28,069 bases of DNA from Zymomonas sp. (GTDB lineage Bacteria; Pseudomonadota; Alphaproteobacteria; Sphingomonadales; Sphingomonadaceae). A model generated the notes under the pieces. That model had not been told where the DNA came from and ran no database searches. It saw only the letters and a program-made list of their open reading frames with translations. Below are positions 6,064-18,798 of the stretch, in pieces. A program made the translations under genes and the position numbers. Numbering within the stretch: position 1 is the stretch's first letter; each line of letters starts with the position of its first letter. The DNA lies in NCBI GenBank assembly GCA_027489105.1, contig JAIYAJ010000442.1:1-28069 (forward strand), in the 5' to 3' direction.

Positions 6064-7287
6064 TTAGAGGGTGCCGCGCTCGGCGAGCCGCAGCATGACG
6101 AGCGTCGAGAGCATCGCCCGTTCGGGCAGGCTCTCGACGATCAGATATTCGTCGGCCGAATGGATCGCGCCGCCGCGCACGCCCATCGTATCGACCACGG
6201 GCACCCCGCAGGCGGCGATGTTGTTGCCGTCGCAGACCCCGCCGCTCGGGCGGTGGCCGATCGGCCGACCCAGCAGCGCGGCGCTGTCCTCGACCAGCGC
6301 GAACAGTCTCTCGGCTTTCGCGTCGAGCGGCTTGGGCGGCCGGCCGAAGCTGCCGTGGCGATGGATCGACACCCCGTGCGCGGCCTCGACCTCGGCGATG
6401 ATCGCGGCCATCAATGCCTCGGCGTCACGCTGGTCTTCGGGCAGGGCGGGACGGAGATTGACGCGCAGCACGGCGCGGTCGGGGACCATGTTGTTCGGCC
6501 CGCCACCGTCGATCTTTGCGGGATTGATCGACAGGCCCGGCCGCCTCGCCTGATAGAGCCGCAGCGCCAGATCGGCAGCGGCGACGACCGCATTGCGGCC
6601 ATCCTCGGGATTGCGGCCGGCATGGGCCGACCGGCCGCTGACGATCAACGAGAAGTTGCCGCTGCCGGGCCGGGCGCCTGCCAGCGTACCGTCGGGCAGG
6701 GCGGAGGGTTCATAGGTCAGTGCGGCAAGCTTGCCCTGCGCGGCGCGCGCGATCAGCGCGGCGGAGCCGGGCGATCCGATCTCCTCGTCGGAATTGATCA
6801 CGACCTCATAGCCGATACGGTCGCGCAGGGGGGACGCCTCGACGCCGCACAGTGCCGCCAGCATCACCGCTATGCCGCCCTTCATATCGGCGACGCCGGG
6901 GCCGTTGAGGACAGAACCGCCTTCCAGATCGGTCAACGTCTGGAAGGGGTGATCGACCGCAAAGACCGTATCCATATGGCCTGTAAGGATGAGCTGGACG
7001 GGGGCTTCCGGCCGAACCCGCAGATGGAGGTGGCGGCCATAGGCGACCGGCCGCACCGATCCGCTGCTGTCGACATTCTCGCCGGGCACTGCCTCGACGA
7101 GATCGAGTGCGCCCGGCAGGATCGCGAAGGCATCGGCGAGCAGTGACGCCTGCATGGCGAGTCCCTCAAGATTGCGCGACCCGCTGTTGATGCTGCTCCA
7201 CTGCTGCACCTGCGCCAGCATCGGCGCGGCGGCGGCGACCTCCAGCGCCGCGCGGTGCGCCGCGACGATGGCAGCGCCCTCGCTCAC
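6064..7287 (-). CDS. M20 family metallohydrolase, carboxypeptidase G2-like; candidate N-succinylglutamate desuccinylase
   Basis: This is a 407-residue M20 di-zinc hydrolase. Visible ligands and catalytic residues are H104 and D106 (GHMDTV), bridging D134 (GVADMKGG), catalytic E168 with E169 (NSDEEIGS) and H376 (AIHSADEY), plus the dimer-domain SAHAGRNPEDGRNAV motif. The pattern YEPSALPDG...PGSGNF and the NSDEE box resemble carboxypeptidase G2, which releases glutamate from N-acylglutamates. The gene is last in the arginine succinyltransferase operon. Its GTG start at 7287 overlaps the astD stop (GTGA), so it is cotranslated with astD. Classical AstE, an unrelated M14-type desuccinylase, is absent from the operon. 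I therefore propose that this enzyme splits N-succinylglutamate into succinate and glutamate; that is inference. A longer reading that starts at 7503 lies inside astD and is rejected. Confidence 0.88.
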   Translation of the reverse strand: MSEGAAIVAAHRAALEVAAAAPMLAQVQQWSSINSGSRNLEGLAMQASLLADAFAILPGALDLVEAVPGENVDSSGSVRPVAYGRHLHLRVRPEAPVQLILTGHMDTVFAVDHPFQTLTDLEGGSVLNGPGVADMKGGIAVMLAALCGVEASPLRDRIGYEVVINSDEEIGSPGSAALIARAAQGKLAALTYEPSALPDGTLAGARPGSGNFSLIVSGRSAHAGRNPEDGRNAVVAAADLALRLYQARRPGLSINPAKIDGGGPNNMVPDRAVLRVNLRPALPEDQRDAEALMAAIIAEVEAAHGVSIHRHGSFGRPPKPLDAKAERLFALVEDSAALLGRPIGHRPSGGVCDGNNIAACGVPVVDTMGVRGGAIHSADEYLIVESLPERAMLSTLVMLRLAERGTL

Positions 7288-8684
7288 AGCAACCGGTCCC
7301 CGAGTTCGGAGGTCAGGTCGATCACCGCGTCGGCCTCGAAGCTGGCCACCGGATAGGCGCAATAGTCGGCGGCGTAATAGGCGCTGGGCCGGTGGTTGCC
7401 CGACTGGCCGAGCCCGCCGAAGGGCATGTTCGCGGCAGCGCCCGTGGTCGGCCGGTTCCAGTTGACGACTCCGGCGCGCGAGCGGTGGAGGAAGCGATGC
7501 CAAAGCTCGGGATCTTCGCTCAGCAGTCCGGCCGACAGACCGAAACTGGTCGCGTTCGCCGCCTCAATCGCCGCGTCGAAATCCGGCACGCGGACGACCT
7601 GCAGGATCGGCGCGAAAATCTCCCGGTCGGGAGCGGCGATGCCCGTGACGTCGTACATGCCGGGCATGACGAAGGCTTCACTGCGATCGAGCCGCTCGAA
7701 GGGGAGGAGCGGGCGGGCGCCCAGCGCCTTGAGCGCATCGACCGCGTCGAGCGCGTTTCGTGCGGCTGCGGGCGAGATCAGCGGCCCCATATAGGGTTCG
7801 GCGGGATCGTCCCACGCCCCGATCCGCAACCGGGCCGCCAGCGTATGGACCGCCTCGATGGTGGAATCGCCTTCATGGCCCTCGGGGATGATCAGCCGCC
7901 GGGCGCAGGAGCAGCGCTGACCGGTGGTGACGAAGGCCGATTGCACGATCGCCGCCGCCATGACGTCGGGGTCGCCCCAGGCGATCAGCGGATTGTTGCC
8001 CCCCAGTTCGAGCGCAAGCACGACATGCGGACGATCCACCATCGCGCGGCGAAAATGGCGTCCGGTTTCGGCCGAACCCGTGAACAGAAGACCGTCGATG
8101 TCGGCATTGACCAGCGCCGCGCCCTGATCGCGGCCGCCCTGCACGATATGAAGGACGTCCGCCGGCACGCCCGCGTCATGGAGCGCGGCGATCATGTTCC
8201 CGCCGGTCAACGGCGCTTCCTCGGACGGCTTGAAGATGACCGCATTGCCCGCCAGCAGCGCCGGGACGATGTGGCCATTTGGCAGGTGCCCGGGGAAGTT
8301 ATAGGGCCCCAGCACCGCCATCACGCCATGGGGACGATGGCGCAGAACAGCCCGCCCGAAGCCGGTATCGGCTTGCCGGCTGCCGGCGCGCTCCGCCTGC
8401 GCCGCGATCGAAACTCCGACCTTGGCCGCCATCGAGCCGAGTTCCGCGCGGCTTTCCCAGAGAGGCTTGCCTGTTTCGCGGGAGATGTCGCGCGCGAGCG
8501 TTTCTGCGCGCTCGCTCAATATCTCGGCATAGCGTCTGAGGATCGCGATGCGGTCCTCTAGCGGCCGGTCGGCCCAGGCGGGAAGCGCCTTGCGTGCAGT
8601 CTGAACGAGCGCCGGAACCCGCTCCGGGGGCGTCGCTTCGCCTTCCCAGACGGTTTCGCCGGTGGCGGGATCCAGCGAGCGCAT
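7284..8684 (-). CDS. astD: N-succinylglutamate 5-semialdehyde dehydrogenase
   Basis: An aldehyde dehydrogenase of about 466 residues that oxidises N-succinylglutamate semialdehyde with NAD, the fourth step of the AST arginine pathway, in the cytoplasm. The catalytic glutamate is E226 in LALELGGNNPLI, and the nucleophile is C258 in GQRCSCARRL. The GQRC-CARR signature is characteristic of AstD. The NAD-binding FTGSAETG motif lies between residues 180 and 200, and FGGLGQSGNHRP is near the C-terminus. The ATG at 8684 overlaps the astA stop by one base (TGATG); a GTG one codon earlier (8687) is also possible. At its 3' end it overlaps the M20 hydrolase gene by four bases. It lies in an operon with astB and two astA genes, which supports the assignment over other ALDH families. 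Confidence 0.94.
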   Translation of the reverse strand: MRSLDPATGETVWEGEATPPERVPALVQTARKALPAWADRPLEDRIAILRRYAEILSERAETLARDISRETGKPLWESRAELGSMAAKVGVSIAAQAERAGSRQADTGFGRAVLRHRPHGVMAVLGPYNFPGHLPNGHIVPALLAGNAVIFKPSEEAPLTGGNMIAALHDAGVPADVLHIVQGGRDQGAALVNADIDGLLFTGSAETGRHFRRAMVDRPHVVLALELGGNNPLIAWGDPDVMAAAIVQSAFVTTGQRCSCARRLIIPEGHEGDSTIEAVHTLAARLRIGAWDDPAEPYMGPLISPAAARNALDAVDALKALGARPLLPFERLDRSEAFVMPGMYDVTGIAAPDREIFAPILQVVRVPDFDAAIEAANATSFGLSAGLLSEDPELWHRFLHRSRAGVVNWNRPTTGAAANMPFGGLGQSGNHRPSAYYAADYCAYPVASFEADAVIDLTSELGDRLL

Positions 8685-9688
8685 CACTGCCTGACCCTCA
8701 CCATATCTCCTTCGCCGATGCGCAATGCGTCCATCGTTTCACCGTCGAGCATCGCCGCGTCCGCGTCGATGCGCACTTTGGTACGAACCGCGCGGAACGT
8801 GCCGATGGCGTCGACCGACACGAGATGCTCGGCTGCTTCGCCGGGATCGCCGCGCCTTGCGGGCAGCCGCGTCGAACGCTCGATCGTGCGGATCGCATCG
8901 CGCGGCGCGGAATAGGTCGGCCCGCCGTCGAATATGTCGACGAGGCCCGAGCCGCGAAACCCCTCATGGTCGAGCATGGCGCGCGCGGCCTCGCCCTCGA
9001 CATGGACGCGGCCGATCGCCTCGGCGGCGCTGTCGGGGATGAGCTCGACATAGATCGGGTGCCGCGGAGCGAGGTCGAGGATGAACTGGCCATCGGTCGA
9101 CATCACCATATGATCGGCTTCGTCGAAAGGCAGACGGAAGAATTTGCTCGCGACGCCGTCCCAGAAGGGACAGGTGCCGTCCGGTGCGAAATAGCCGCGC
9201 AGTTCGGCCATGACGGTTTCCGAGAAGCGCTTGGGCTCGGCCCCGATCAGCATGTAGCGCGAGCGGGCGAGCAGGCTGCCGGCGCCGCCCGAGCGTCGCT
9301 CGGGGCGCAGGTAGAGCGAACCGACCTCGGTCCACCCGGCGCATTCGTTGACCAGCACCAGCGCCTGATGGTCGAAGCGCGTGTTGATCGCCGAGGAGAA
9401 TTGCGCGAGCGTCATCACCCGGAAGGAGAAATGCGGCCGACCGACGCCGACCGCCGCGCGAACCCCACACAGCCCTTCGATCCGTCCAGTCGCGCTGTCC
9501 TCGAGCATCAGCGTATACCAGGCTTCGCGCGGCGCCATTTCGCCCCGGAAGCTGGCTTCCGACAGGGTCAGACGATGGAGCAGAGTCGCCTCATCCTCAG
9601 GCAGGCTGGTGAAGCCGCGACCCGACAGGATGGCGAGTTCCATGAGCGAGCCCAGGTCCGGCGTCGCAGCTGGGCGGACGATCAGCAT
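8684..9688 (-). CDS. astA: Arginine N-succinyltransferase (second AstA-family gene of the operon)
   Basis: This 334-residue AstA-family (GNAT-like fold) enzyme transfers succinyl from succinyl-CoA to the alpha-amino group of arginine, the first AST step. Family landmarks are the N-terminal LIVRPAATPDLGSLMELA followed by GFTSLPEDEATL, then LRPERRSGGAGSLLARSRYM, VMAELRGYF, CPFWDGVASKFF, HPIYVELIP, IGRVHVEGEAAR and VDIFDGGPT. The ATG at 9688 has no recognisable Shine-Dalgarno sequence. The 22 codons between the astB stop and this ATG are open and in the astB frame, so translation here may depend on ribosomes arriving from astB. It is about as diverged from its paralogue at 11026-12039 as the two subunits of the Pseudomonas arginine/ornithine succinyltransferase are, so the two products probably form a heteromer. 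Confidence 0.9.
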   Translation of the reverse strand: MLIVRPAATPDLGSLMELAILSGRGFTSLPEDEATLLHRLTLSEASFRGEMAPREAWYTLMLEDSATGRIEGLCGVRAAVGVGRPHFSFRVMTLAQFSSAINTRFDHQALVLVNECAGWTEVGSLYLRPERRSGGAGSLLARSRYMLIGAEPKRFSETVMAELRGYFAPDGTCPFWDGVASKFFRLPFDEADHMVMSTDGQFILDLAPRHPIYVELIPDSAAEAIGRVHVEGEAARAMLDHEGFRGSGLVDIFDGGPTYSAPRDAIRTIERSTRLPARRGDPGEAAEHLVSVDAIGTFRAVRTKVRIDADAAMLDGETMDALRIGEGDMVRVRQ

Positions 9689-9754
9689 GGGCGAGCCGCG
9701 CGGTGGCAGGGACGGTTCATCATTGCTCGCTTGTGCGTCATTACGCGCCTGAGT

Positions 9755-11029
9755 TCAAACCCGGGCCAGCAGATCGTCCAACGCATCATGGGCCCGGCCG
9801 ATGCTGTTCCAAAGGTCCGGGAGCGCGAGATCGGACGTGCCGATCTGCTCGGGCCAGTGGCGGTCGACCACCGCGCACAGCGCGTCCCAGCGCCGCTCGT
9901 CGAGCAGGAAGCGCGGGTCGATCGCGGCGCGCTGCGCTTCCGTGACCGGAACACGCAGTCGCAGACAGGCCGGGCCGCCTCCATTGCGCATGCTCTCGCG
10001 CACATCGACGACGATCGCCTGTGCAATCGGGTTGTTACCCGCGACGATGCCTTCGACCGCCGCCCAGACGCTCTTATGCTCTTGTGCCTCGGAGGGGAGA
10101 ATCAGCGCCATGCTGCCATCGGGCAGCGTGATCAGCTGCGAATTGAACAGATAGGAGCGGATCGCATCGTCGAGCGTGATGCTGTCGACCTCGACCGGCA
10201 CGAAGCCGGGCACGTCGCGTGCCAGGGCCGCAAACAGCCCATCGCGGTCCTCGAAGGCCTCGGCATGGGCCAGCAGGACATATTCGTTGGCGACGGCGAC
10301 GACATCATTGTGGAAGGCGCCGGCGTCGATCGCGCGCTGCGACTGCAGCATATGGAGCGCCGGTGCGCCCGACAGACGCGCCACCGCTTCGCCCGCTCGC
10401 CGCGCTTGGCGTTCGGGAAAGCGGCTGCCGCGCTGGGTGCCGTGGATGAAGACGTTGAGGCCGCGCGCGGCATGGGAAGGCGTCAGCCGCATATGGTTCG
10501 CCGCGCCCTCGTCGCTGAAATGCTGCGAGGCAGGGAGGGGGGCATGGACGGCGAAATGGGCGGCGTCGGGGAAAATGCGGCGCAGCATGGCGAAGGTGTC
10601 GGCTGCCTCGAAACTCCGGTGGAGCATCGTCGACAGATTGGCGGTCACCAGATGCACGCGACCGTCGGCGCTGTCGGCGGGGGCAATCACGGTCGCTGCG
10701 TTCGCGGCCCACATGGCCGAGGCCGAGCAGATATTGTTGAAGAGCAGCGGGTCTTCCCCTGCCGCCGACGACAGGACTTCGCGATCCGTCCCCTCGAACC
10801 CCAGAGCGCGCAGCGCCGGCACTGCCGGGCGGCGAGGTGGAGGAAAGAAGCCCTGTACGAGGCCGAGGTCCATCAGCCTGCGCATCTTGCCCAGGCCTTG
10901 CAGCGCCGCCGCACGCGGGCGTGAAACCGCACCCGCATTGCTCGCACTGGCGATGTTGCCCGGCGACAGACCGGCATAATTGTGGATTGGCCCGACAAGG
11001 CCGTCGAAGTTGATTTCGATGGTGGTCAT
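9755..11029 (-). CDS. astB: N-succinylarginine dihydrolase
   Basis: This 424-residue enzyme of the arginine-modifying (amidinotransferase-fold) superfamily hydrolyses N-succinylarginine to N-succinylornithine, two ammonia and CO2, the second AST step. The start [20 protein letters not shown] with [13 protein letters not shown] is the AstB signature. The nucleophilic cysteine is C355 in [11 protein letters not shown] and the catalytic histidine is H240 in [12 protein letters not shown]. Length is slightly below the E. coli enzyme. The ATG at 11029 overlaps the stop of the upstream AstA-like gene by four bases (ATGA), showing translational coupling. In Pseudomonas the two succinyltransferase genes are adjacent (aruF-aruG), whereas here astB sits between them. 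Confidence 0.94.
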
Positions 11030-12039
11030 AGCGCCAGATATCCGATCGGGTCATGCTCCGCGAGGCCCAGCACGTCGGCGCTCAACCGGTCGGTGCGGAT
11101 ATGCCCGCTGGCGGCTTCCACCGCTGCGGGGACGCAGCAGAAATCGGCGCCGCTGCCTTTGACCAGCATATGGTCGCGCACCGTATCCGTGATGGTGCCG
11201 CCGGCGAATGTTGCGTGATGCAGATCGCGGACGGCGCGCAGCTGGTCGATCTCGGCCACGAGTGTGGGGCCGGCATCGAATATGTCGACATAGCCTTCCT
11301 CGCGGAACCCCTCTTCGAGGAGCAGCGCGCGCGCTGCACGGCCATCGTCATGGACCTTGCCGATCACTTTCTGCGCGTCCGTCGAGAGCATGTTGACGTA
11401 GATCGGCGCGCGCGGGCCGAGATCGGCGATGAACTGGTTGCCGGTCGTTGCATTGATATGGTCGGCCTCGGCAAAGCTCATCGCATAGAAGCGGCCGCCG
11501 ACCGCGTCCCAGAATGGCGAGCGGCCGTCGTCGAGCCATCCGCGCAGATCGGCCACGACCCGATCGCCGAACAACGCGCGGTGGGTGGCGATGAACAGAT
11601 AGCGGCTGCGCGCCATCATCCGCCCATAGCCGCCCTTGCGCAGTTCGGGGTCGACCATCAATCCACCGACCTCGGCGCAATCCTCCAGATCGTTGGTGAG
11701 GGTGAGTACGGGGAAGCGTACCATACGCCCGTCGATGCTCGACCGCTGCGTCATATGGCTGATGCGGTAGCTGTAGAAGGGCCAGTCGACGCCCAGGCGG
11801 GGAAAGACCATGCCGCATCCGCGCAGCCGGCCATCGATCTCCAGCCCGAGTATGATCGCACCGCCCAGCTTTTCGCCCGACAGCAGGCGGCGGCTGCAAT
11901 TGATCTTGCTCTCCAGCGTCGCGCGGTCGGGGGGCAAATTGGTAAAGCCCGGACCTGCCAGCCGGGCGAGGCTCATCAAGGCCTCGAGATCGTCGGGCCG
12001 TACCGGCCGGATGCGGGGGATCGTCATGGAGTCGGGCAT
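11026..12039 (-). CDS. astA: Arginine/ornithine N-succinyltransferase, first AstA-family gene of the operon
   Basis: A second complete AstA-family succinyltransferase (337 residues) and the first gene of the AST operon. Landmarks parallel those of the other copy: [20 protein letters not shown] with [77 protein letters not shown] and [12 protein letters not shown]. Both copies keep all blocks, so neither looks degenerate. In P. aeruginosa, AruF and AruG are two such subunits of one enzyme that accepts arginine and ornithine, and I infer a comparable heteromer here. The start is either the ATG at 12039 or the ATG at 12027 (MTIPRIRPV); neither has a strong ribosome site. The 92-base gap to the divergent gene at 12132 should hold the operon promoter. 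I see no clear -35/-10 pair there, nor an obvious ArgR box. Confidence 0.88.
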
Positions 12040-13496: not shown

Positions 13497-13524
13497 GCTG
13501 GCCTAGCGAAGCAGCCAGGCCAGC
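13497..13524. terminator. Inverted repeat at the convergent 3' ends of the lipoprotein gene and sppA
   Basis: GCTGGCCT (13497-13504) and AGGCCAGC (13517-13524) form a perfect eight-base inverted repeat with a 12-base loop, spanning the sppA stop codon in the 19-base convergent gap. Without a T-run it is only a possible bidirectional transcription barrier. Confidence 0.25.
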
Positions 13525-15383
13525 AAGCTGCGCGCCTCGCTTATGTCCTTGGCGCGCGGCGCGCCGGACAGGCTCTGGCATTCGAGGCAGCGCACCTGCA
13601 TCGAGGGACCCGTCAGCAAGGACTTGGCTGTCCCGACCGCCTGCAGCATCTGCCGCTCGGGCCGACCGAGAATGACGGCCCAGGGATCGGTCGCAACCTG
13701 CGCCTCACGGCTTTCCTCGGGGGCAGCGAAGTCGCGCAGCAACTGACGCCAGGGCGACAGCGGTTCCTCGATGTAGAGCGGGTGGACATTGGCGGGGTCG
13801 AGCTTGGCAAGCTTGGCGGCAGCGGCGACGGCATCGTCGACATTGCCGAAGCTGTCCACGAGGCCGATCTGCCGCGCGGCGACGCCGGACCAGACGCGGC
13901 CCTGCGCGATCTGGTTGACCCGCTCGGGAGTCATCTTGCGCGACTGCGCGACGAGACCGACGAAGCGACCATAGATGTCTTCGATCGAGCCTTGCACCAT
14001 CGCATCGAACTGCGGGGATGTACCGCGCAGCACGTCGGGCTCGCCTGAAAGGGGGGTCGTCTTTACCCCGTCGGCACCGATGCCGAGCTTTTCGAGCGAT
14101 CCCTGAAATGTCGGGATGATACCGAACACACCGATCGAACCGGTGATCGTCGAGCGGTCGGCGATGATGCGATCGGCAGGGGTCGAGATCCAGTAGCCGC
14201 CGCTGGCAGCAAGGCCGCCCATCGACACCACGACGGGCAACCCCATCGCCTTGGCTTCGAGCACTGCCGAACGGATGCGGTCAGCCCCGGTCACCGAGCC
14301 GCCGGGCGAATCTACCCGCAACACCAGCGCCTTGATGCGCTTGCGCGCCAGTTCCTCTTCGAGCAACTCGGCGATGGTCGTGCCACCGGCAGTGCCCGGC
14401 GGGGCATAGCCGTCGACAATTTCTCCGGCGACCGTCAGCACGCCGATGGGCATTCCGGCAGACTTTTCCGGGTTGGAAGACACCCAGCGATCGAAGTCGA
14501 TCGTCTTGAAGCCGTTGGGAAGGTCGCCGGCATCCTCGCCCGCGATCGCGGCGATGCGCGAACGGAAGGCGTTGCGGTCGCCGAGCTTGTCGACCAGGCC
14601 ATTGTCGACGGCGGCCTGCGACATCCTGCCCCCGGATGCGCCGATCAGCGCGGTCGGACGGGCGATATAGTCGGCGATGCGGGCCTTCGGCCGTGCCTTG
14701 CGGACGTCGGCCTGCCACTCGGCCCAGATCGCGCCGTACAGCGCCTGGCTGGCCTCGCGCGCCTCGGGTGACTGATCGTTTCTCAGGAAGGGTTCGACGG
14801 CGGCCTTATAGGTGCCGACACGGTATATCTTGGCGGTGATGCCAAGCTTGTCCATCAGCCCCTTAAAATAAGGCTGCGATCCGCCGGGCCCGGCGATGGC
14901 GACGGCGCCGAGCGGGTCGAGCCAGATCTCCGTAGCGTGGGCCGCGAGGCGATAGCCGTCGTCTGCATAGGCCGTGGCATAAGCGAAGACCGGTTTGCCG
15001 CCGGCGCGGACCTTGTCGATGGCGGCGGATGCGGCGGCGAGTGTCGCGGGTTCGGCGCCCATGAAGCCGTCGAGGTCTAGCACCACCGCTTTTACGCTGC
15101 TCGAACGCGATGCAGCGGACAGCGCGCGCTCGACATCGCGCAGGCGCGTTTCGCGAACGAGACTGTTGCCGCCCGACAGCAGCGACAGCGTATCGGTCTC
15201 GGACGGCTGTTCGACCAGGCTGCCCGCCAGATCGAGAACGAGCGCGCCGGAGGAAGGCAGGGCGCTGTTCGGTTTCATCGACAGGGCGAAAGCGAGCGTG
15301 CCGAAGAACAGCAGCATGGCGATCAGGACGAGCGCGTCCTTGATCCCCACGAGCAAGGCCCAAAGCCCCCGTACCAGTTTCAT
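13503..15383 (-). CDS. sppA: Signal peptide peptidase SppA, 67-kDa tandem S49 type
   Basis: This 626-residue membrane-anchored serine peptidase degrades cleaved signal peptides. One N-terminal membrane helix (LWALLVGIKDALVLIAMLLFF) is followed by two S49 domains, matching the length of the tandem type (E. coli SppA, 618 residues). The Ser/Lys dyad is intact and split between the two halves as expected: K193 in GTYKAAVEPFLRND and S394 in GGLAASGGYWIS, followed by STITGSIGVFG. The C-terminal tail holds a CLEC (CxxC) pair shortly after MQVR, which is unusual and could bind metal or form a disulfide. The ATG at 15383 is preferred because the membrane helix then starts near residue 5. An ATG at 15446 would add 21 hydrophilic residues. 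The gene lies 67 bases downstream of, and in the same direction as, the transglutaminase-like gene; the gap contains a GGAC/GTCC plus CCGCG/CGCGG hairpin. Confidence 0.94.
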   Translation of the reverse strand: MKLVRGLWALLVGIKDALVLIAMLLFFGTLAFALSMKPNSALPSSGALVLDLAGSLVEQPSETDTLSLLSGGNSLVRETRLRDVERALSAASRSSSVKAVVLDLDGFMGAEPATLAAASAAIDKVRAGGKPVFAYATAYADDGYRLAAHATEIWLDPLGAVAIAGPGGSQPYFKGLMDKLGITAKIYRVGTYKAAVEPFLRNDQSPEAREASQALYGAIWAEWQADVRKARPKARIADYIARPTALIGASGGRMSQAAVDNGLVDKLGDRNAFRSRIAAIAGEDAGDLPNGFKTIDFDRWVSSNPEKSAGMPIGVLTVAGEIVDGYAPPGTAGGTTIAELLEEELARKRIKALVLRVDSPGGSVTGADRIRSAVLEAKAMGLPVVVSMGGLAASGGYWISTPADRIIADRSTITGSIGVFGIIPTFQGSLEKLGIGADGVKTTPLSGEPDVLRGTSPQFDAMVQGSIEDIYGRFVGLVAQSRKMTPERVNQIAQGRVWSGVAARQIGLVDSFGNVDDAVAAAAKLAKLDPANVHPLYIEEPLSPWRQLLRDFAAPEESREAQVATDPWAVILGRPERQMLQAVGTAKSLLTGPSMQVRCLECQSLSGAPRAKDISEARSLLAWLLR

Positions 15384-15450
15384 CGCGCGATCAACCTTCG
15401 TTCCGTTATGCGGAGGCAGATAGGGACCCCGCGACGCGGCGTCCATGGGA

Positions 15451-16278
15451 TCAGCTGTGATATTGCGCCTGAGACATGCTGATGTCGACGCCCACGTTCA
15501 TCACCTCATGCCCGCCGCCGACGCGGGCGCCCGAGATCGGCGCGGCATCGCGGAAGTCGAGGCCTTTGGCGACGCGGACATAGCGCTCGTTCGGGCACAT
15601 GTCGTTGGCCGGGTCGAAGCCGATCCAGCCGAAGCCCGGCACGTCGATCTCCGCCCAGAAATGCGGGGCATGGCGATGCTCCGGATCGGGAGATTCGCGA
15701 TAGATGTATCCGGTGACGAAGCGCGCAGCGAAGCCCGCAGCGCGCGCGACCGACACGAGGACATGGGCGAGGTCCATGCTGCAGCCATGTCCCGCCTCGA
15801 TGATCTCGGCGACCGATCGAACCTCGGTGCTGCGCTGAAGATTGCAGCGGAAGAGCGCTGCCACGGCAGAATTGAGTGCATGGGCGCGGGCAAGATCGTC
15901 ACCGGTGGTCCCGCCATGGCGCTCGGCCAGATCGACCAGCGGCTCCGGTGCCTTGGTGAGTTCGGTCGGGCGTCGAAAAATGGCCGCCGGTAATGTTTCG
16001 GCGGTCCCGGTAACGACCCCGGCGCGATCCTCGGTCAGGACCTCGCCCGAAACCCGCATCCCGATCCGCTCGATCGGACCCGCCAGATAGAGCATCGAGA
16101 CGACATTGCCGAAACCGTCGCGCGAATGTTTCAGGCGCGCATCGCAATCCACGTCGATATGCCAGTTGACGATATTCTGCCCGACATGGCTCGTCGGTGT
16201 CATGCGCAGCATCTGCACCACGCGCGACTGCGGGATGGTGAAGCGATATTCGGTCTGGTGCTGGATCAGCAGGCGCAT
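15451..16278 (-). CDS. Transglutaminase-like cysteine peptidase of the ATP-grasp/alpha-E system
   Basis: A 275-residue protein with an N-terminal beta-rich domain (MRLLIQHQTEYRF and RVVQMLRMTPTSH, residues 1 to about 120) and a C-terminal transglutaminase-fold domain. The triad is visible: C166 in GHGCSMDLAH, H206 in PHFWAEIDV, and D222 in GFDPAND. Such bacterial proteins are thought to act as papain-like peptidases or amide-bond transferases, not as blood-type transglutaminases. The start is one base past the alpha-E stop, so the two are cotranslated; the reading that begins 11 codons earlier overlaps that gene and is rejected. The adjacency to an alpha-E gene and a circularly permuted ATP-grasp gene is a recurrent bacterial arrangement in which the peptidase is predicted to trim or remove what the ligase makes. 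Its real substrate is unknown. Confidence 0.92.
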   Translation of the reverse strand: MRLLIQHQTEYRFTIPQSRVVQMLRMTPTSHVGQNIVNWHIDVDCDARLKHSRDGFGNVVSMLYLAGPIERIGMRVSGEVLTEDRAGVVTGTAETLPAAIFRRPTELTKAPEPLVDLAERHGGTTGDDLARAHALNSAVAALFRCNLQRSTEVRSVAEIIEAGHGCSMDLAHVLVSVARAAGFAARFVTGYIYRESPDPEHRHAPHFWAEIDVPGFGWIGFDPANDMCPNERYVRVAKGLDFRDAAPISGARVGGGHEVMNVGVDISMSQAQYHS

Positions 16279-16279
16279 G

Positions 16280-17215
16280 TCAGGAGAACCGGAACTGTTG
16301 ACCGACGGCATGGTGGATCCGCGTATTCTCCCGAATGAACGCGGTCAGCCATTCGTGCAGGCCCTGGTTGAAAATGGCGTCGATCGATGTGCGCTCCAGC
16401 GCGTTGTGGCGGACGCGCGCGAGACGGTCTGCCTCGCCCTGAAGGCCGGTGCGCTTCCCGATCGCGTTGAGGTGACCGATCGCCTCCTCCGATGAGGCGA
16501 TGAGCGAGCGTGGCAACTCCCGGCGCAGGCTGAGCAGTTCCGCCACCAGCCAGGGCTTCAGCCCCTCGCTGTACAGCCAGCGATAGGCGGTCACCGCCGA
16601 AACGGTATGGAGGATGGTCGTCCACTGATCGCGGTCGATCGGTCCGCCCACCTTCTCGCCCTCGGGCAGGAGGAGGTGATATTTGACGTCGATCAGCCGG
16701 GCCGTGTTGTCCGCCCGCTCCATCGCCGCGCCGAGGCCTATGAAGGCATAGGCTTCGTTGCGCAGCATGCGGTGCAGAGCGCCCTCGAAACCGCGCGTCT
16801 CCGCACGAATCTGTTCGACGAGGCTGAGCGTTGCCTGGCTGCCCCCGGTGGAAGCGCGGCCACGCAGGCCCAGCCAGGCGCGGTTGATCGCTTCCCAGGC
16901 ATCGCGGCTGAGCGCCGTTCGCACCGACTTCGCATTGCTGCGCGCAGCATCGAGGCAGGAGCGCACCGAATTGGCATTGTCGGTCGACAGCGTCAGGTAG
17001 CGGCTGATGGCGAGCGGGGTCCTGGTTTCGCCGGTGAGCGCGAAATCCTGGTCGGCGGCAGCGACGAGCAGTGCGCTGTCCCAGGCGCCCTGGCCCGCCG
17101 GGCGGGCGGACAGGGCGTCGAGCCTTATGGTGGCCTCGATCAGCTTGGCGGTGAACTCGGCCCGTTCGACATAACGGCCGATCCAGTAGAGCGAGTTGGC
17201 GGTACGCGAGAGCAT
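16280..17215 (-). CDS. Alpha-E domain protein
   Basis: A 311-residue all-helical alpha-E (COG2307-type) protein. The diagnostic start MLSRTANSLYWIGRYVERAE is intact, followed by SRYLTLSTDNANSVRSCLDAARSNAKSVR, split here as two helices, and by the conserved FIGLGAAMERADNTARLID and DRDQWTTILHTVSAVTAYRW stretches. No enzymatic residues are established for the family; the acidic and arginine-rich helices suggest a partner or substrate-binding role beside the ATP-grasp ligase, with which it is fused in some bacteria. Its ATG overlaps the ATP-grasp stop by one base (TGATG). Its stop leaves one base before the transglutaminase-like start. Equimolar production of the three proteins, and a complex among them, is the natural inference. 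Confidence 0.92.
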   Translation of the reverse strand: MLSRTANSLYWIGRYVERAEFTAKLIEATIRLDALSARPAGQGAWDSALLVAAADQDFALTGETRTPLAISRYLTLSTDNANSVRSCLDAARSNAKSVRTALSRDAWEAINRAWLGLRGRASTGGSQATLSLVEQIRAETRGFEGALHRMLRNEAYAFIGLGAAMERADNTARLIDVKYHLLLPEGEKVGGPIDRDQWTTILHTVSAVTAYRWLYSEGLKPWLVAELLSLRRELPRSLIASSEEAIGHLNAIGKRTGLQGEADRLARVRHNALERTSIDAIFNQGLHEWLTAFIRENTRIHHAVGQQFRFS

Positions 17216-18660
17216 CAGGCGCGCACCTCCGGGCCGGTCAGGATGAGGCTGTCCTTGGTGCCGCCGCCCTGGCTGGAGTTCACCACCAGCGATCCCTCCC
17301 GCAATGCCACGCGGGTCAATCCGCCCGGCGTTATGGTGACGCCCCTGGCGCCCGACAGGACGAATGGCCGGAAGTCGACATGGCGTGGTGCCACCCCGGC
17401 TTCGGTGAGGGTGGGGACGGTGGACAGGGCCAGCGTCGGCTGTGCGATGTAGCGTTGTGGCTCGGCGATCAGGGCGGCGCGGAACTCTTCGATCTGCGCC
17501 TTGGTCGCGGTAGGGCCGACCAGCATGCCGTAGCCGCCGGATCCGTCGACCAGCTTGACCACCAGCTTGTCGAGATTGTCGAGCGTATAGCGCAACGCAT
17601 CGGCCTCGCGGCAGCGATAGGTCTCGACATTCGGCAGTTTGGCGTCGCTCCCCGAATAATAGCGGACGATTTCGGGCATGTAGCTGTAGATCGCCTTGTC
17701 GTCGGCGATGCCCGTACCCGGGGCATTCACCAGCGCGACATTGCCCGCCATATGGGCGGCGATGATGCCCGGCACGCCCAGCAGCGAGTCCGGACGGAAG
17801 ACCAGCGGGTCGAGATAGTCGTCATCGATCCGGCGGTAGATCACGTCGACCTGGACTCGCCCCTCGATCGTGCGCATCCAGACCTTGTCGTCGTCGACCT
17901 CCAGATCGGCAGCCTCGACCAGTTCGATGCCCATCGAATCGGCGAGGAAGCTGTGCTCGTAAAAGGCCGAGTTGAAATGGCCTGGGGTCAGCAGGACGCA
18001 GGTGGCACCAGCGCCCTGATTGCGCGGGGAGACCGACTGGAGCGTTTCCAGCAGCGCATCGGGATAGGAGTCGATCGGGGCGACCTTGAACTGCTCGAAC
18101 AGTTCGGGGCAGAGCCGCAGCATCGCCTCCCGATTTTCGAGCATGTAGGACACGCCCGAAGGTGTGCGCGCATTGTCCTCGAGCACCCAGAAATCGTCGG
18201 GCCCGGTCCGCACCAGATCGATGCCGCAGATATGCGCGAACACACCGTGCGGCGGCTTGGCTCCCGCGAGCATCGGACGGAATTGCGGATTGGACAGGAT
18301 CAGTTCTTCGGGAACGATCTTGTCGGCGAGGATCTTCCGGGGGCCGTAAATGTCGGCGAGGAAGGCGTTGATCGCCTCGACGCGCTGGACGAGGCCTTCG
18401 GAGAGATTGGCCCATTCGCGGGCGGTGAAGATACGCGGGACGATGTCGAAGGGAATGATGCGCTCGGCGGATTCGTCTTCGCCGTAGACGGCGAAGGTAA
18501 TCCCAAGTTGTCGGAAGGCGGCTTCGGCGGCCTTCTGTCTTCGATCGAGTTCGCTAGACGGCGTGTCCTCTATCCATTGCAATAACTCCGCGAACTCGGG
18601 TCGTCCTGCCGGGTCGCCCGGTGTGCCGCGGATCTCGTCGAAAGCGCCTGTCCCTGCCAT
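17215..18660 (-). CDS. Circularly permuted type 2 ATP-grasp ligase
   Basis: A 481-residue circularly permuted ATP-grasp protein (COG2308 type), predicted to use ATP to activate a carboxylate and form an amide bond. Visible family blocks are RIFTAREWANLSEGLVQRV with INAFLADIYG, ILSNPQFRP, ICGIDLVRTG, WVLEDNARTPSGVSYMLENR, the glycine-rich KLVDGSGGYGMLVGP loop, PRHVDFRPFVL, and the C-terminal VNSSQGGGTKDSLIL. The start at 18660 has GGAG five bases before the ATG. It heads a three-gene unit with overlaps of one base or spacing of one base. Comparative genomics has proposed that this unit makes and removes a short peptide or peptide-like tag. No substrate can be read from the sequence. Its 184-base upstream region carries leader hairpins and a sigma-54-like motif, described separately. 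Confidence 0.93.
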   Translation of the reverse strand: MAGTGAFDEIRGTPGDPAGRPEFAELLQWIEDTPSSELDRRQKAAEAAFRQLGITFAVYGEDESAERIIPFDIVPRIFTAREWANLSEGLVQRVEAINAFLADIYGPRKILADKIVPEELILSNPQFRPMLAGAKPPHGVFAHICGIDLVRTGPDDFWVLEDNARTPSGVSYMLENREAMLRLCPELFEQFKVAPIDSYPDALLETLQSVSPRNQGAGATCVLLTPGHFNSAFYEHSFLADSMGIELVEAADLEVDDDKVWMRTIEGRVQVDVIYRRIDDDYLDPLVFRPDSLLGVPGIIAAHMAGNVALVNAPGTGIADDKAIYSYMPEIVRYYSGSDAKLPNVETYRCREADALRYTLDNLDKLVVKLVDGSGGYGMLVGPTATKAQIEEFRAALIAEPQRYIAQPTLALSTVPTLTEAGVAPRHVDFRPFVLSGARGVTITPGGLTRVALREGSLVVNSSQGGGTKDSLILTGPEVRA

Positions 18661-18672
18661 ACAGCTCCGTTA

Positions 18673-18720
18673 TTGTTCGTATCGAACAAGTGGATGGTGC
18701 ATCGCTTTGTTGCGACGCAC
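18673..18720 (-). promoter_or_regulatory. Two consecutive hairpins in the leader of the ATP-grasp operon
   Basis: Distal arm pair: GTGCATCGC (18697-18705) and GCGACGCAC (18712-18720) around TTTGTT; on the minus-strand RNA all nine positions pair, one as a G-U. Proximal: TTGTTCG (18673-18679) and CGAACAA (18683-18689) form a perfect 7+3+7 palindrome ending 12 bases before the ATG and just upstream of the GGAG ribosome site. As DNA, the palindrome could be an operator for a dimeric repressor. As RNA, the pair could control ribosome access. Both readings are inference. Confidence 0.5.
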
Positions 18721-18781
18721 AAGAGGTTTTGCGGCTTCATGGATATGGCATGTTTCCAGCCCGCGCGAGCGCGTACAACGC

Positions 18782-18798
18782 GGCAGATATTGTGCCAG
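18782..18798 (-). promoter_or_regulatory. Possible sigma-54 promoter for the ATP-grasp operon
   Basis: On the minus strand the segment reads CTGGCACAATATCTGCC. It has a perfect TGGCAC at -24 and TGC at -12, with the invariant GG-N10-GC spacing of RpoN promoters. The G after TGGCAC and the first T of TTGC are not matched. It would start transcription about 110 bases before the ATP-grasp ATG. No enhancer-binding site was identified. Confidence 0.3.

What the first reader, a model, noticed from the sequence alone, without database searches (positions are those of the whole stretch)
15451..18660. Complete ATP-grasp / alpha-E / transglutaminase-like operon: a candidate peptide-tagging or peptide-synthesis system
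Three coupled genes (overlap of one base, then a gap of one base) encode a circularly permuted ATP-grasp ligase, an alpha-E protein and a cysteine peptidase of transglutaminase fold with an intact Cys166-His206-Asp222 triad. The sequence shows this directly. Comparative genomics of amidoligases (the COG2308/COG2307/COG1305 neighbourhood) has predicted amide-bond ligation paired with hydrolysis, often together with the proteasome-like Anbu peptidase. No substrate or product is established. All catalytic parts needed for a make-and-remove cycle are present.
Basis: partly seen in the sequence, partly recalled or inferred. Interest (0 to 1): 0.75.

Follow-up and report, generated by a model that had tools for sequence, protein, structure and literature searches.

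The report
Ligase operon with disarmed peptidase partner
Three linked bacterial genes look like an amide-bond-making enzyme kept intact beside a peptidase-like protein that has lost its key catalytic residue, and their promoter carries the kind of switch with which related bacteria sense stored carbon (bioplastic granules), which points to a role when nitrogen is short.

Summary
The trio is real at 15451-18660 (minus strand): circularly permuted ATP-grasp ligase, Alpha-E, transglutaminase-like protein (TG). It is a known gene set (the Anbu-operon core); ligase and Alpha-E occur together in 80 of 80 fetched relatives. The catalytic column (family GVCQD) is Ser167 in the window; the named Cys166 sits on the preceding Val column. 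Of 81 loci 18 keep the TG Cys; 61 have another residue and 2 no TG found, nearly all sphingomonads, while ligase and Alpha-E invariants stay. Anbu is not beside the trio; the closest relative has it elsewhere. So a self-contained make-and-remove cycle is not shown; this looks like a ligase-only variant whose TG is still under purifying selection. New: 53 of 69 sphingomonad-side trio promoters, the window's included, carry the published PhaR operator (background 0.07%). PhaR is the repressor titrated by polyhydroxybutyrate granules. In Pseudomonas putida the homologous operon rises in nitrogen limitation. Substrate, product and PhaR binding remain untested.

The parts
17215..18660 (-). Circularly permuted type 2 ATP-grasp ligase (COG2308 kind), 481 aa; first gene of the operon
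   Evidence: PDB 3n6x E=3.3e-182 over residues 6-474; 200 of 204 positions invariant in 18 Cys-intact loci kept
16280..17215 (-). Alpha-E protein, 311 aa, all-helical model; shares one base with the ligase gene
   Evidence: AlphaFold model pLDDT 87.7; no PDB match at Foldseek E<=0.001
15451..16278 (-). Transglutaminase-like protein, 275 aa, fold intact, catalytic Cys column is Ser: predicted pseudo-peptidase
   Evidence: AlphaFold model pLDDT 91.0, Foldseek best hit 3isr E=2.1e-20
15778..15780 (-). Codon AGC, Ser167: the column that is Cys (GVCQD) in intact relatives
15781..15783 (-).
15661..15663 (-). His206 of the former triad, conserved
15613..15615 (-). Asp222 of the former triad, conserved
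18707..18722 (-). PhaR-type operator TTGTGCGTCGCAACAA; its 12-mer on the plus strand at 18711-18722 fits the published consensus TGCRNYGCASMA; its 5' end lies 62 bases before the ATG
   Evidence: only match in the window even with one mismatch; consensus in 53 of 69 sphingomonad-side trio promoters; consensus from PMC6201568
18782..18798 (-). Candidate sigma-54 -24/-12 element (GG-N10-GC); weak evidence, not conserved in the closest relative
13503..15446 (-). SppA (peptidase S49), longest ORF begins after a 4-base gap from the TG stop; possible fourth operon gene in this lineage
   Evidence: also follows the trio in L050

Best explanation
The locus is a ligase-only variant of the Anbu-associated ATP-grasp/Alpha-E/TG system, placed under the carbon-storage repressor PhaR. 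When carbon is in excess and nitrogen short, polyhydroxybutyrate (PHB) granules form and titrate PhaR off the operator at 18707-18722, releasing transcription (operator shown by sequence; titration published for other alphaproteobacteria; its action here inferred). The ATP-grasp enzyme, with Alpha-E as its partner, then forms an amide bond on a small amino compound or peptide (chemistry inferred from family and intact conserved positions). The TG-like protein no longer hydrolyses: it keeps fold, His and Asp and is under purifying selection, so it most likely serves as a non-catalytic binding or scaffold subunit (inferred). Removal of the product, if it happens, must come from elsewhere (a paralogous TG with intact Cys, or Anbu encoded at another place, both seen in relatives).
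For: Trio conserved, ligase and Alpha-E in 80 of 80 loci. TG Cys column of 79 TGs: Cys 18, Pro 26, Ala 21, Ser 12, Gly 1, Val 1; no TG found in 2 of 81 loci; His and Asp stay in 78 of 79. Positions invariant in the 18 Cys-intact loci and kept in at least 95% of the Cys-lost loci: ligase 196 of 204, Alpha-E 57 of 63, TG only 24 of 50. TG dN/dS: 0.06-0.39 in 14 Cys-lost pairs, 0.08-0.31 in 6 Cys-intact pairs. Published PhaR consensus in the 100 nt upstream: 53 of 69 sphingomonad-side loci, 0 of 11 others, background 0.07% of 5762 stretches. A trio-derived pattern hits 26 places in 11 genomes, reversed control 0: 8 trio, 7 beside a phasin gene, 3 upstream of a PHB depolymerase gene. PhaR family gene in 11 of 11 genomes. 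Nitrogen-limitation induction of the homologous operon in P. putida and NtrC and sigma-54 dependence in B. cenocepacia. Second TG with GVCQD read in 5 of 6 genomes examined.
Against: No substrate, product, transcript or binding measurement is known to me for this species, and its own genome is not held. Loss of Cys and of Anbu map to 4 changes each on the tree, too few to test co-loss (a quick tree with long branches flagged). Cys166 or Ser167 could still act as nucleophile in the window and L050. 16 of 69 sphingomonad-side promoters lack the consensus, and so do the 11 others, Bradyrhizobium among them. In the three PhaR papers searched the word transglutaminase does not occur in the main text (supplements not seen). 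In P. putida the operon is induced also in an rpoN mutant, and most in a relA/spoT mutant that makes little PHA, so there induction follows nitrogen, not PHA. The PP_2685 promoter did not respond to nitrogen in a reporter test, the PP_2688 promoter did, 3.7 fold.
Confidence: 0.6

Rival explanations
1. Complete make-and-remove cycle: the TG is catalytic, using Cys166 shifted by one position, or Ser167 as a serine nucleophile with His206 and Asp222.
For: Cys166, Ser167, His206 and Asp222 are present in both the window and its sister L050; TG is under purifying selection; fold confident. 12 of 61 Cys-lost TGs have Ser at the column.
Against: The Cys of solved relatives aligns to 167; in the other Cys-lost loci the column is mostly Pro or Ala, so no nucleophile is selected there; Val166, Gln168, Gln202 and Ala207, invariant in the intact set, are changed in the window too.
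Confidence: 0.15
2. The operon makes a nitrogen-scavenging ligation intermediate: ATP-dependent ligation tags a poor amine source, and other enzymes oxidise or hydrolyse it, comparable in logic to gamma-glutamylation routes of amine catabolism (recalled).
For: Induction under nitrogen limitation together with urea uptake genes in P. putida and NtrC dependence in B. cenocepacia; metagenome correlation of these domains with urea domains; strong sigma-54-like sites upstream of the trio in 7 of 20 sampled Pseudomonadota at score >=27 (background 0.27%).
Against: Of the nine neighbour families other than Anbu that I annotated by Pfam (one representative each, not every conserved family), none is an amine oxidase or a small-molecule transporter. 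Regulation does not reveal the substrate.
Confidence: 0.25
3. A relic: the system is decaying in sphingomonads and the trio has little function.
For: TG Cys and Anbu are lost in most sphingomonad loci; 6 of 16 genomes searched have no Anbu match.
Against: Ligase and Alpha-E invariants kept; their dN/dS is 0.01-0.22 in the 20 pairs; trio and operator conserved.
Confidence: 0.07
4. The element is not a PhaR site but the operator of another regulator, or part of the core promoter.
For: Its TTGTGC could be a -35 box (my reading); binding untested.
Against: The same element lies beside phasin and upstream of PHB depolymerase genes and fits the published PhaR consensus; PhaR family gene in 11 of 11 genomes.
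Confidence: 0.12

Closest known systems
Anbu operon / COG2308-COG2307-COG1305 amidoligase neighbourhood (Iyer 2009, recalled, paper not held; described in passages of PMC5666114)
   Same: Same three families; CP ATP-grasp ligase with Alpha-E
   Different: No Anbu next to the trio in the window; TG lacks the catalytic Cys; promoter carries a PhaR-type operator
P. putida PP_2685-PP_2688 and B. cenocepacia I35_5080-83 clusters
   Same: Homologous families by their annotation; expressed in nitrogen limitation, and during PHA accumulation in P. putida (PMC7801951, PMC3325844)
   Different: NtrB/NtrC control is proposed there (NtrC and sigma-54 dependence reported in B. cenocepacia; in P. putida induction persists in an rpoN mutant); the P. 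putida cluster includes the Anbu gene, the B. cenocepacia one a further large transglutaminase-like protein. The state of their TG Cys was not checked here
PhaR (AniA) regulon of Bradyrhizobium diazoefficiens and Sinorhizobium meliloti
   Same: Operator consensus; phasin, PHB depolymerase and ppdK targets
   Different: The word transglutaminase does not occur in the main texts searched; among the loci examined the consensus is found at the trio on the sphingomonad side only (none in 20 others)
PDB 3n6x, 'putative glutathionylspermidine synthase' (a label of the record)
   Same: Near full-length sequence relative of the ligase (E=3.3e-182)
   Different: No activity known to me

Membership tests
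CP ATP-grasp type 2 (PF14403/PF04174) | Profile match above the curated cut-off over the whole domain | tested here: met
   531.8 bits against 32; 467.5 against 23.1
CP ATP-grasp type 2 (PF14403/PF04174) | Conserved positions of the family intact | tested here: met
   window departs at 4 of 204 positions invariant in 18 Cys-intact loci: V196I, P219A, L299I, T309A
CP ATP-grasp type 2 (PF14403/PF04174) | ATP-dependent amide ligation | not testable with these tools
   needs enzymology
Alpha-E (PF04168) | Profile match over the whole protein | tested here: met
   260.7 bits against 20.8, residues 1-308
Transglutaminase-like superfamily (PF01841, COG1305 kind) | Fold | tested here: met
Transglutaminase-like superfamily, active cysteine peptidase | Cys-His-Asp triad | tested here: not met
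   Ser at the Cys column; His and Asp present
Anbu operon | Trio adjacent and in order | tested here: met
Anbu operon | Anbu gene in the operon | tested here: not met
   none in the window by tblastn
Anbu operon | Anbu anywhere in the genome | not testable with these tools
   own genome not held; the closest relative G001 has it at another place
PhaR regulon | PhaR consensus operator in the promoter | tested here: met
PhaR regulon | phaR gene in the genome | tested here: inconclusive
   11 of 11 relatives have it; own genome not held
PhaR regulon | PhaR binding and derepression by PHB | not testable with these tools
   needs gel shift and reporter
NtrC/sigma-54 regulon | Sigma-54 promoter upstream | tested here: inconclusive
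   one site scoring 26 of 29.5 at -138 (sphingomonad background 0.57% at >=26), absent at the aligned place in L050

The most novel reading that the evidence does not exclude
In sphingomonads the hydrolytic half of the Anbu system has been discarded step by step (TG nucleophile first, Anbu afterwards), leaving a PHB-sensing ligase machine, ATP-grasp plus Alpha-E plus a dead TG as substrate receptor, that makes a stable amide or peptide product, possibly on granule-associated protein or as a small metabolite, whenever storage granules form.
Probability: 0.3. Interest if true: 0.8.

Novelty: new variant of a known kind. Interest (0 to 1): 0.6.

Why it matters
Alpha-E, a marker of this system, occurs in about half of the sampled Pseudomonadota (156 of 299 genomes), yet the product is not known to me. 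That the ligase half is kept where hydrolases are lost says that the ligase is the core, and the PhaR operator tells when and in which environmental bacteria to look for the product: PHB-accumulating, nitrogen-limited sphingomonads that lack Anbu and the TG Cys, where the product may not be degraded. That makes a long-standing open question directly testable.

Tried and rejected
Sigma-54 promoter in the window: first favoured (GG-N10-GC at 18782-18798), but a 15-letter form of it is expected 0.56 times per window by chance, it is not at the aligned place in L050, and 10 of 69 sphingomonad-side trio promoters score >=24 against a background of about 9%. Kept only as possible. It is better supported in L073-L080 (8 of 8 at >=25.5, local background 2.7%, but mostly close kin) and in 20 sampled Pseudomonadota (7 at >=27, background 0.27%). 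Against a strict sigma-54 dependence: P. putida rpoN mutant still induces the operon.

Arginine succinyltransferase (AST) genes near the trio in the window and in L040: considered as a hint to an arginine substrate; one of 80 loci plus the window is about what chance gives (my rough estimate from genome size, no call), so rejected.

ATE (aminoacyl-tRNA-protein transferase) downstream on the other strand in 49 loci: tempting as protein tagging, but a synteny feature of one clade; rejected as evidence.

Co-loss of TG Cys and Anbu as statistics: 17 / 59 / 4 / 1 in the two-by-two of 81 loci reduces to 4 changes each; no significance claimed.

Alpha-E and PhaC co-occurrence in 299 Pseudomonadota: 97 of 156 against 24 of 143 counting only the 121 strong PhaC matches (44 weaker ones dropped), or 128 of 156 against 37 of 143 with all 165; not corrected for kinship or genome size, so only a hint.

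Paper search for PhaR with transglutaminase returned papers on pharmacy and polymers because the term matched word starts; uninformative. A first phasin test had a background that contained the trio promoters themselves; it was redone without them. A first count of window departures saw only part of the positions; the full count is.
Full report
WHAT IS THERE. The minus strand carries three tightly packed genes: a 481-aa circularly permuted ATP-grasp protein (17215-18660), a 311-aa Alpha-E protein (16280-17215, one shared base) and a 275-aa transglutaminase-like protein, TG (15451-16278, one-base gap). Pfam scores are far above the curated cut-offs; NCBIfam gave no match for any of the three. 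The ligase is a near full-length relative of PDB 3n6x. The organism is a sphingomonad close to Rhizorhabdus: the best protein match is 98% identical to a protein named after R. phycosphaerae. No whole genome is held for the window.

CONSERVATION. Ligase and Alpha-E lie side by side in 80 of 80; a TG follows in 78 by tblastn, all but L025 and L065.

THE TRIAD IS NOT INTACT. In the family the catalytic Cys lies in GVCQD. A profile of 28 TGs aligns this column to the GVC of 3isr and the GFC of TgpA 6g49. AlphaFold (pLDDT 91.0) starts the helix 167-180 at that residue, and Foldseek's best match is 3isr (E=2.1e-20). I had no coordinates, so distances were not measured. The sister locus L050 has the same change.

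AN ASYMMETRIC LOSS. Of 81 loci (80 plus the window), 18 keep the TG Cys. In 61 the column is Pro 26, Ala 21, Ser 12, Gly 1 or Val 1, and no TG was found in two; His and Asp stay in every TG found but that of L063. Combined with Anbu in the same locus: intact and Anbu 17; lost and no Anbu 59; lost but Anbu present 4 (L002, L003, L055, and L065 without a TG); intact and no Anbu 1 (L016, whose genome has Anbu elsewhere). At genome level, 16 genomes searched for Anbu: intact with Anbu 7, lost without Anbu 6, lost with Anbu 3, intact without Anbu 0. The order seems to be Cys first, Anbu later (inference from the intermediates). On a quick tree of ligase plus Alpha-E each trait needs 4 changes, so no significance is claimed. 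In a sample of 30 Alpha-E loci from the phylum (among the best-scoring), 22 of 24 TGs found are intact and 18 of 30 loci show Anbu within the short flank held.

THE LIGASE HALF IS KEPT. Positions invariant in the 18 Cys-intact loci and kept in at least 95% of the Cys-lost loci: ligase 196 of 204, Alpha-E 57 of 63, TG 24 of 50, with the strongest TG losses at C167, V166, Q168, Q202 and G165. The window itself keeps 200 of 204, 61 of 63 and 42 of 50. The TG does not look like a decaying pseudogene: dN/dS in 14 Cys-lost pairs is 0.06-0.39, in 6 Cys-intact pairs 0.08-0.31 (pairs chosen by hand, some loci used twice, simple counting method). TG has a higher dN than its two partners in each of the 20 pairs. 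Each of six sphingomonad genomes has at least one further TG besides the trio's: in five (G001, G005, G007, G010, G014) one of them reads GVCQDFAQ, next to a distant ligase-like match in four of these and to an Alpha-E-like match in G001; in G011 my motif search did not read the site.

THE PROMOTER. Aligning five upstream regions showed a conserved block, CTTGTGCNNCGCARCAAAGCG about 60 bases before the ATG. The 16-letter core occurs once in the window, at 18707-18722, also with one mismatch allowed (expected 0.03). In 11 sphingomonad genomes it occurs 26 times, the reversed control never. Sorted by the genes beside them: 8 trio; 7 within 0.7 kb of a phasin domain, six of these with a PhaC-like ORF on the other side (PhaC by Pfam in L090, the rest by my reading; L100 shows none); 3 upstream of a PHB depolymerase gene (PF10503); 1 upstream of pyruvate phosphate dikinase; 2 upstream of a glycosyltransferase (Pfam on L105, L083 by reading); 1 that I read as galU (not searched); 1 (L102) between the 3' ends of two ORFs, one of them DUF1989, so probably no promoter; 3 unassigned, one of them apparently within an ORF. 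In three of the 11 genomes the trio has no exact match: G001 and G014 have an altered box, G003 none that scores. The PhaR family (PF07879) is in 11 of 11. The PhaR consensus of Bradyrhizobium, TGCRNYGCASMA, built on footprinted sites and further promoters (PMC6201568, passages read), was then tested as an independent pattern: 53 of 69 sphingomonad-side loci carry it in the 100 nt upstream, 16 do not, 0 of 11 others do, and 0.07% of 5762 random stretches do (the stretches are mostly coding; L019 was dropped for too short an upstream). The window's plus-strand 12-mer at 18711-18722, TGCGACGCACAA, is letter for letter a site listed for phaP1 in PMC10888616 (table passage). A matrix built from ten PHB-gene sites, themselves found with the trio pattern, finds the element in 44 of 69 trio promoters at a 0.1% background threshold; a matrix from 50 trio sites finds it upstream of 9 of 11 phasins at score >=15 (background 0.1%); one of the two misses has its box closer to the gene than the stretch scanned. 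PhaR represses phasin and depolymerase genes until PHB sequesters it (PMC12542648, abstract and passages); that paper also discusses ppdK as a target.

CONDITION OF USE. In P. putida the homologous operon rises under nitrogen limitation: PP_2686-2688 11 to 37 fold in wild type, relA/spoT and rpoN mutants, PP_2685 1.1 to 4.8 fold (PMC7801951, passages and table); PP2685-2687 in nitrogen-limited, PHA-accumulating cells (PMC3325844, passage); PP_2685 and PP_2688 are up on nitrate against ammonium, and of their promoters that of PP_2688, the ligase gene, answered nitrogen limitation 3.7 fold while that of PP_2685 did not (PMC8050072, passages). [quoted passage not shown] putida it follows nitrogen rather than PHA. 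In B. cenocepacia the cluster I35_5080-83 depends on NtrC and sigma-54 (PMC5491218, passages). In 20 sampled Pseudomonadota, 7 trio promoters score >=27 for a sigma-54 site against 0.27% background, and none has the PhaR consensus. So different switches point to the same state: carbon excess, nitrogen short. On the sphingomonad side the box occurs also where the TG is intact (L016, L027, L045, L060, L064), so it is not a consequence of the TG loss.

MECHANISM, WITH STATUS OF EACH STEP. Operon and families: shown. TG nucleophile column lost: shown by alignment; loss of activity: inferred. PhaR operator: shown by sequence; PhaR binding and derepression: inferred. Amide ligation by ATP-grasp with Alpha-E: inferred from family knowledge and intact conserved positions. 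TG as binding or scaffold subunit: inferred from fold, kept His and Asp and purifying selection. Product: unknown.

COMPARISON AND NOVELTY. It is a member of the known CP ATP-grasp / Alpha-E / TG gene set and works, if the prediction holds, like an amide ligase system. It fails two features of the complete Anbu system: no Anbu in the operon and no intact TG. I found no statement of the PhaR link or of the TG loss in what I read after ten paper searches (library limited to open-licence PMC; one search was uninformative; most listed papers were seen as listings only). The founding paper (Iyer 2009) was not held and is cited from recall and through PMC5666114 (passages). Verdict: new variant of a known kind.

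Noticed in passing
window 6064-12039: Arginine succinyltransferase pathway cluster (aldehyde dehydrogenase, two astA-like genes at 8684-9688 and 11026-12039, astB, M20 peptidase) on the same strand, 3.4 kb downstream of the trio; L040 has astB, astA and M20 beside its trio on the other strand. Probably chance.
   Followed up: partly
window 13503-15446: SppA (S49) ORF begins after a 4-base gap from the TG stop; in L050 SppA also follows the trio, so it may be a fourth operon gene in this lineage.
   Followed up: partly
L073-L080 and L183-L202: Strong sigma-54-like elements upstream of the trio in Bradyrhizobium relatives and in several sampled Pseudomonadota, suggesting that sigma-54 control is widespread and was exchanged for PhaR on the sphingomonad side.
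   Followed up: partly
L004:13294-14082 and family 3 (49 loci): An aminoacyl-tRNA-protein transferase (ATE) gene lies downstream of the trio on the other strand in many loci of the Sphingomonas side.
   Followed up: no
L087, L104, L083, L105: PhaR-type boxes upstream of pyruvate phosphate dikinase, a galU-like gene (my reading) and glycosyltransferases: candidates for a wider sphingomonad PhaR regulon.
   Followed up: partly
L148:6972-7808 (G001) and L150 (G006): Anbu encoded away from the trio; no ligase, Alpha-E or TG match around it and no PhaR box upstream.
   Followed up: partly
L155, L158, L160, L162, L163: Second TG copies with the intact GVCQD motif, beside distant ligase-like matches (L155, L158, L160, L162) or an Alpha-E-like match (L163).
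   Followed up: partly
L138 and L120: Outside the sphingomonad side two of 24 TGs also lack the Cys (Gly and Ser); L138 keeps Anbu in the locus, L120 shows none in the short flank. Independent cases to compare.
   Followed up: no
window 16280-17215, Alpha-E: All-helical AlphaFold model (pLDDT 87.7) without a significant PDB match by Foldseek.
   Followed up: partly
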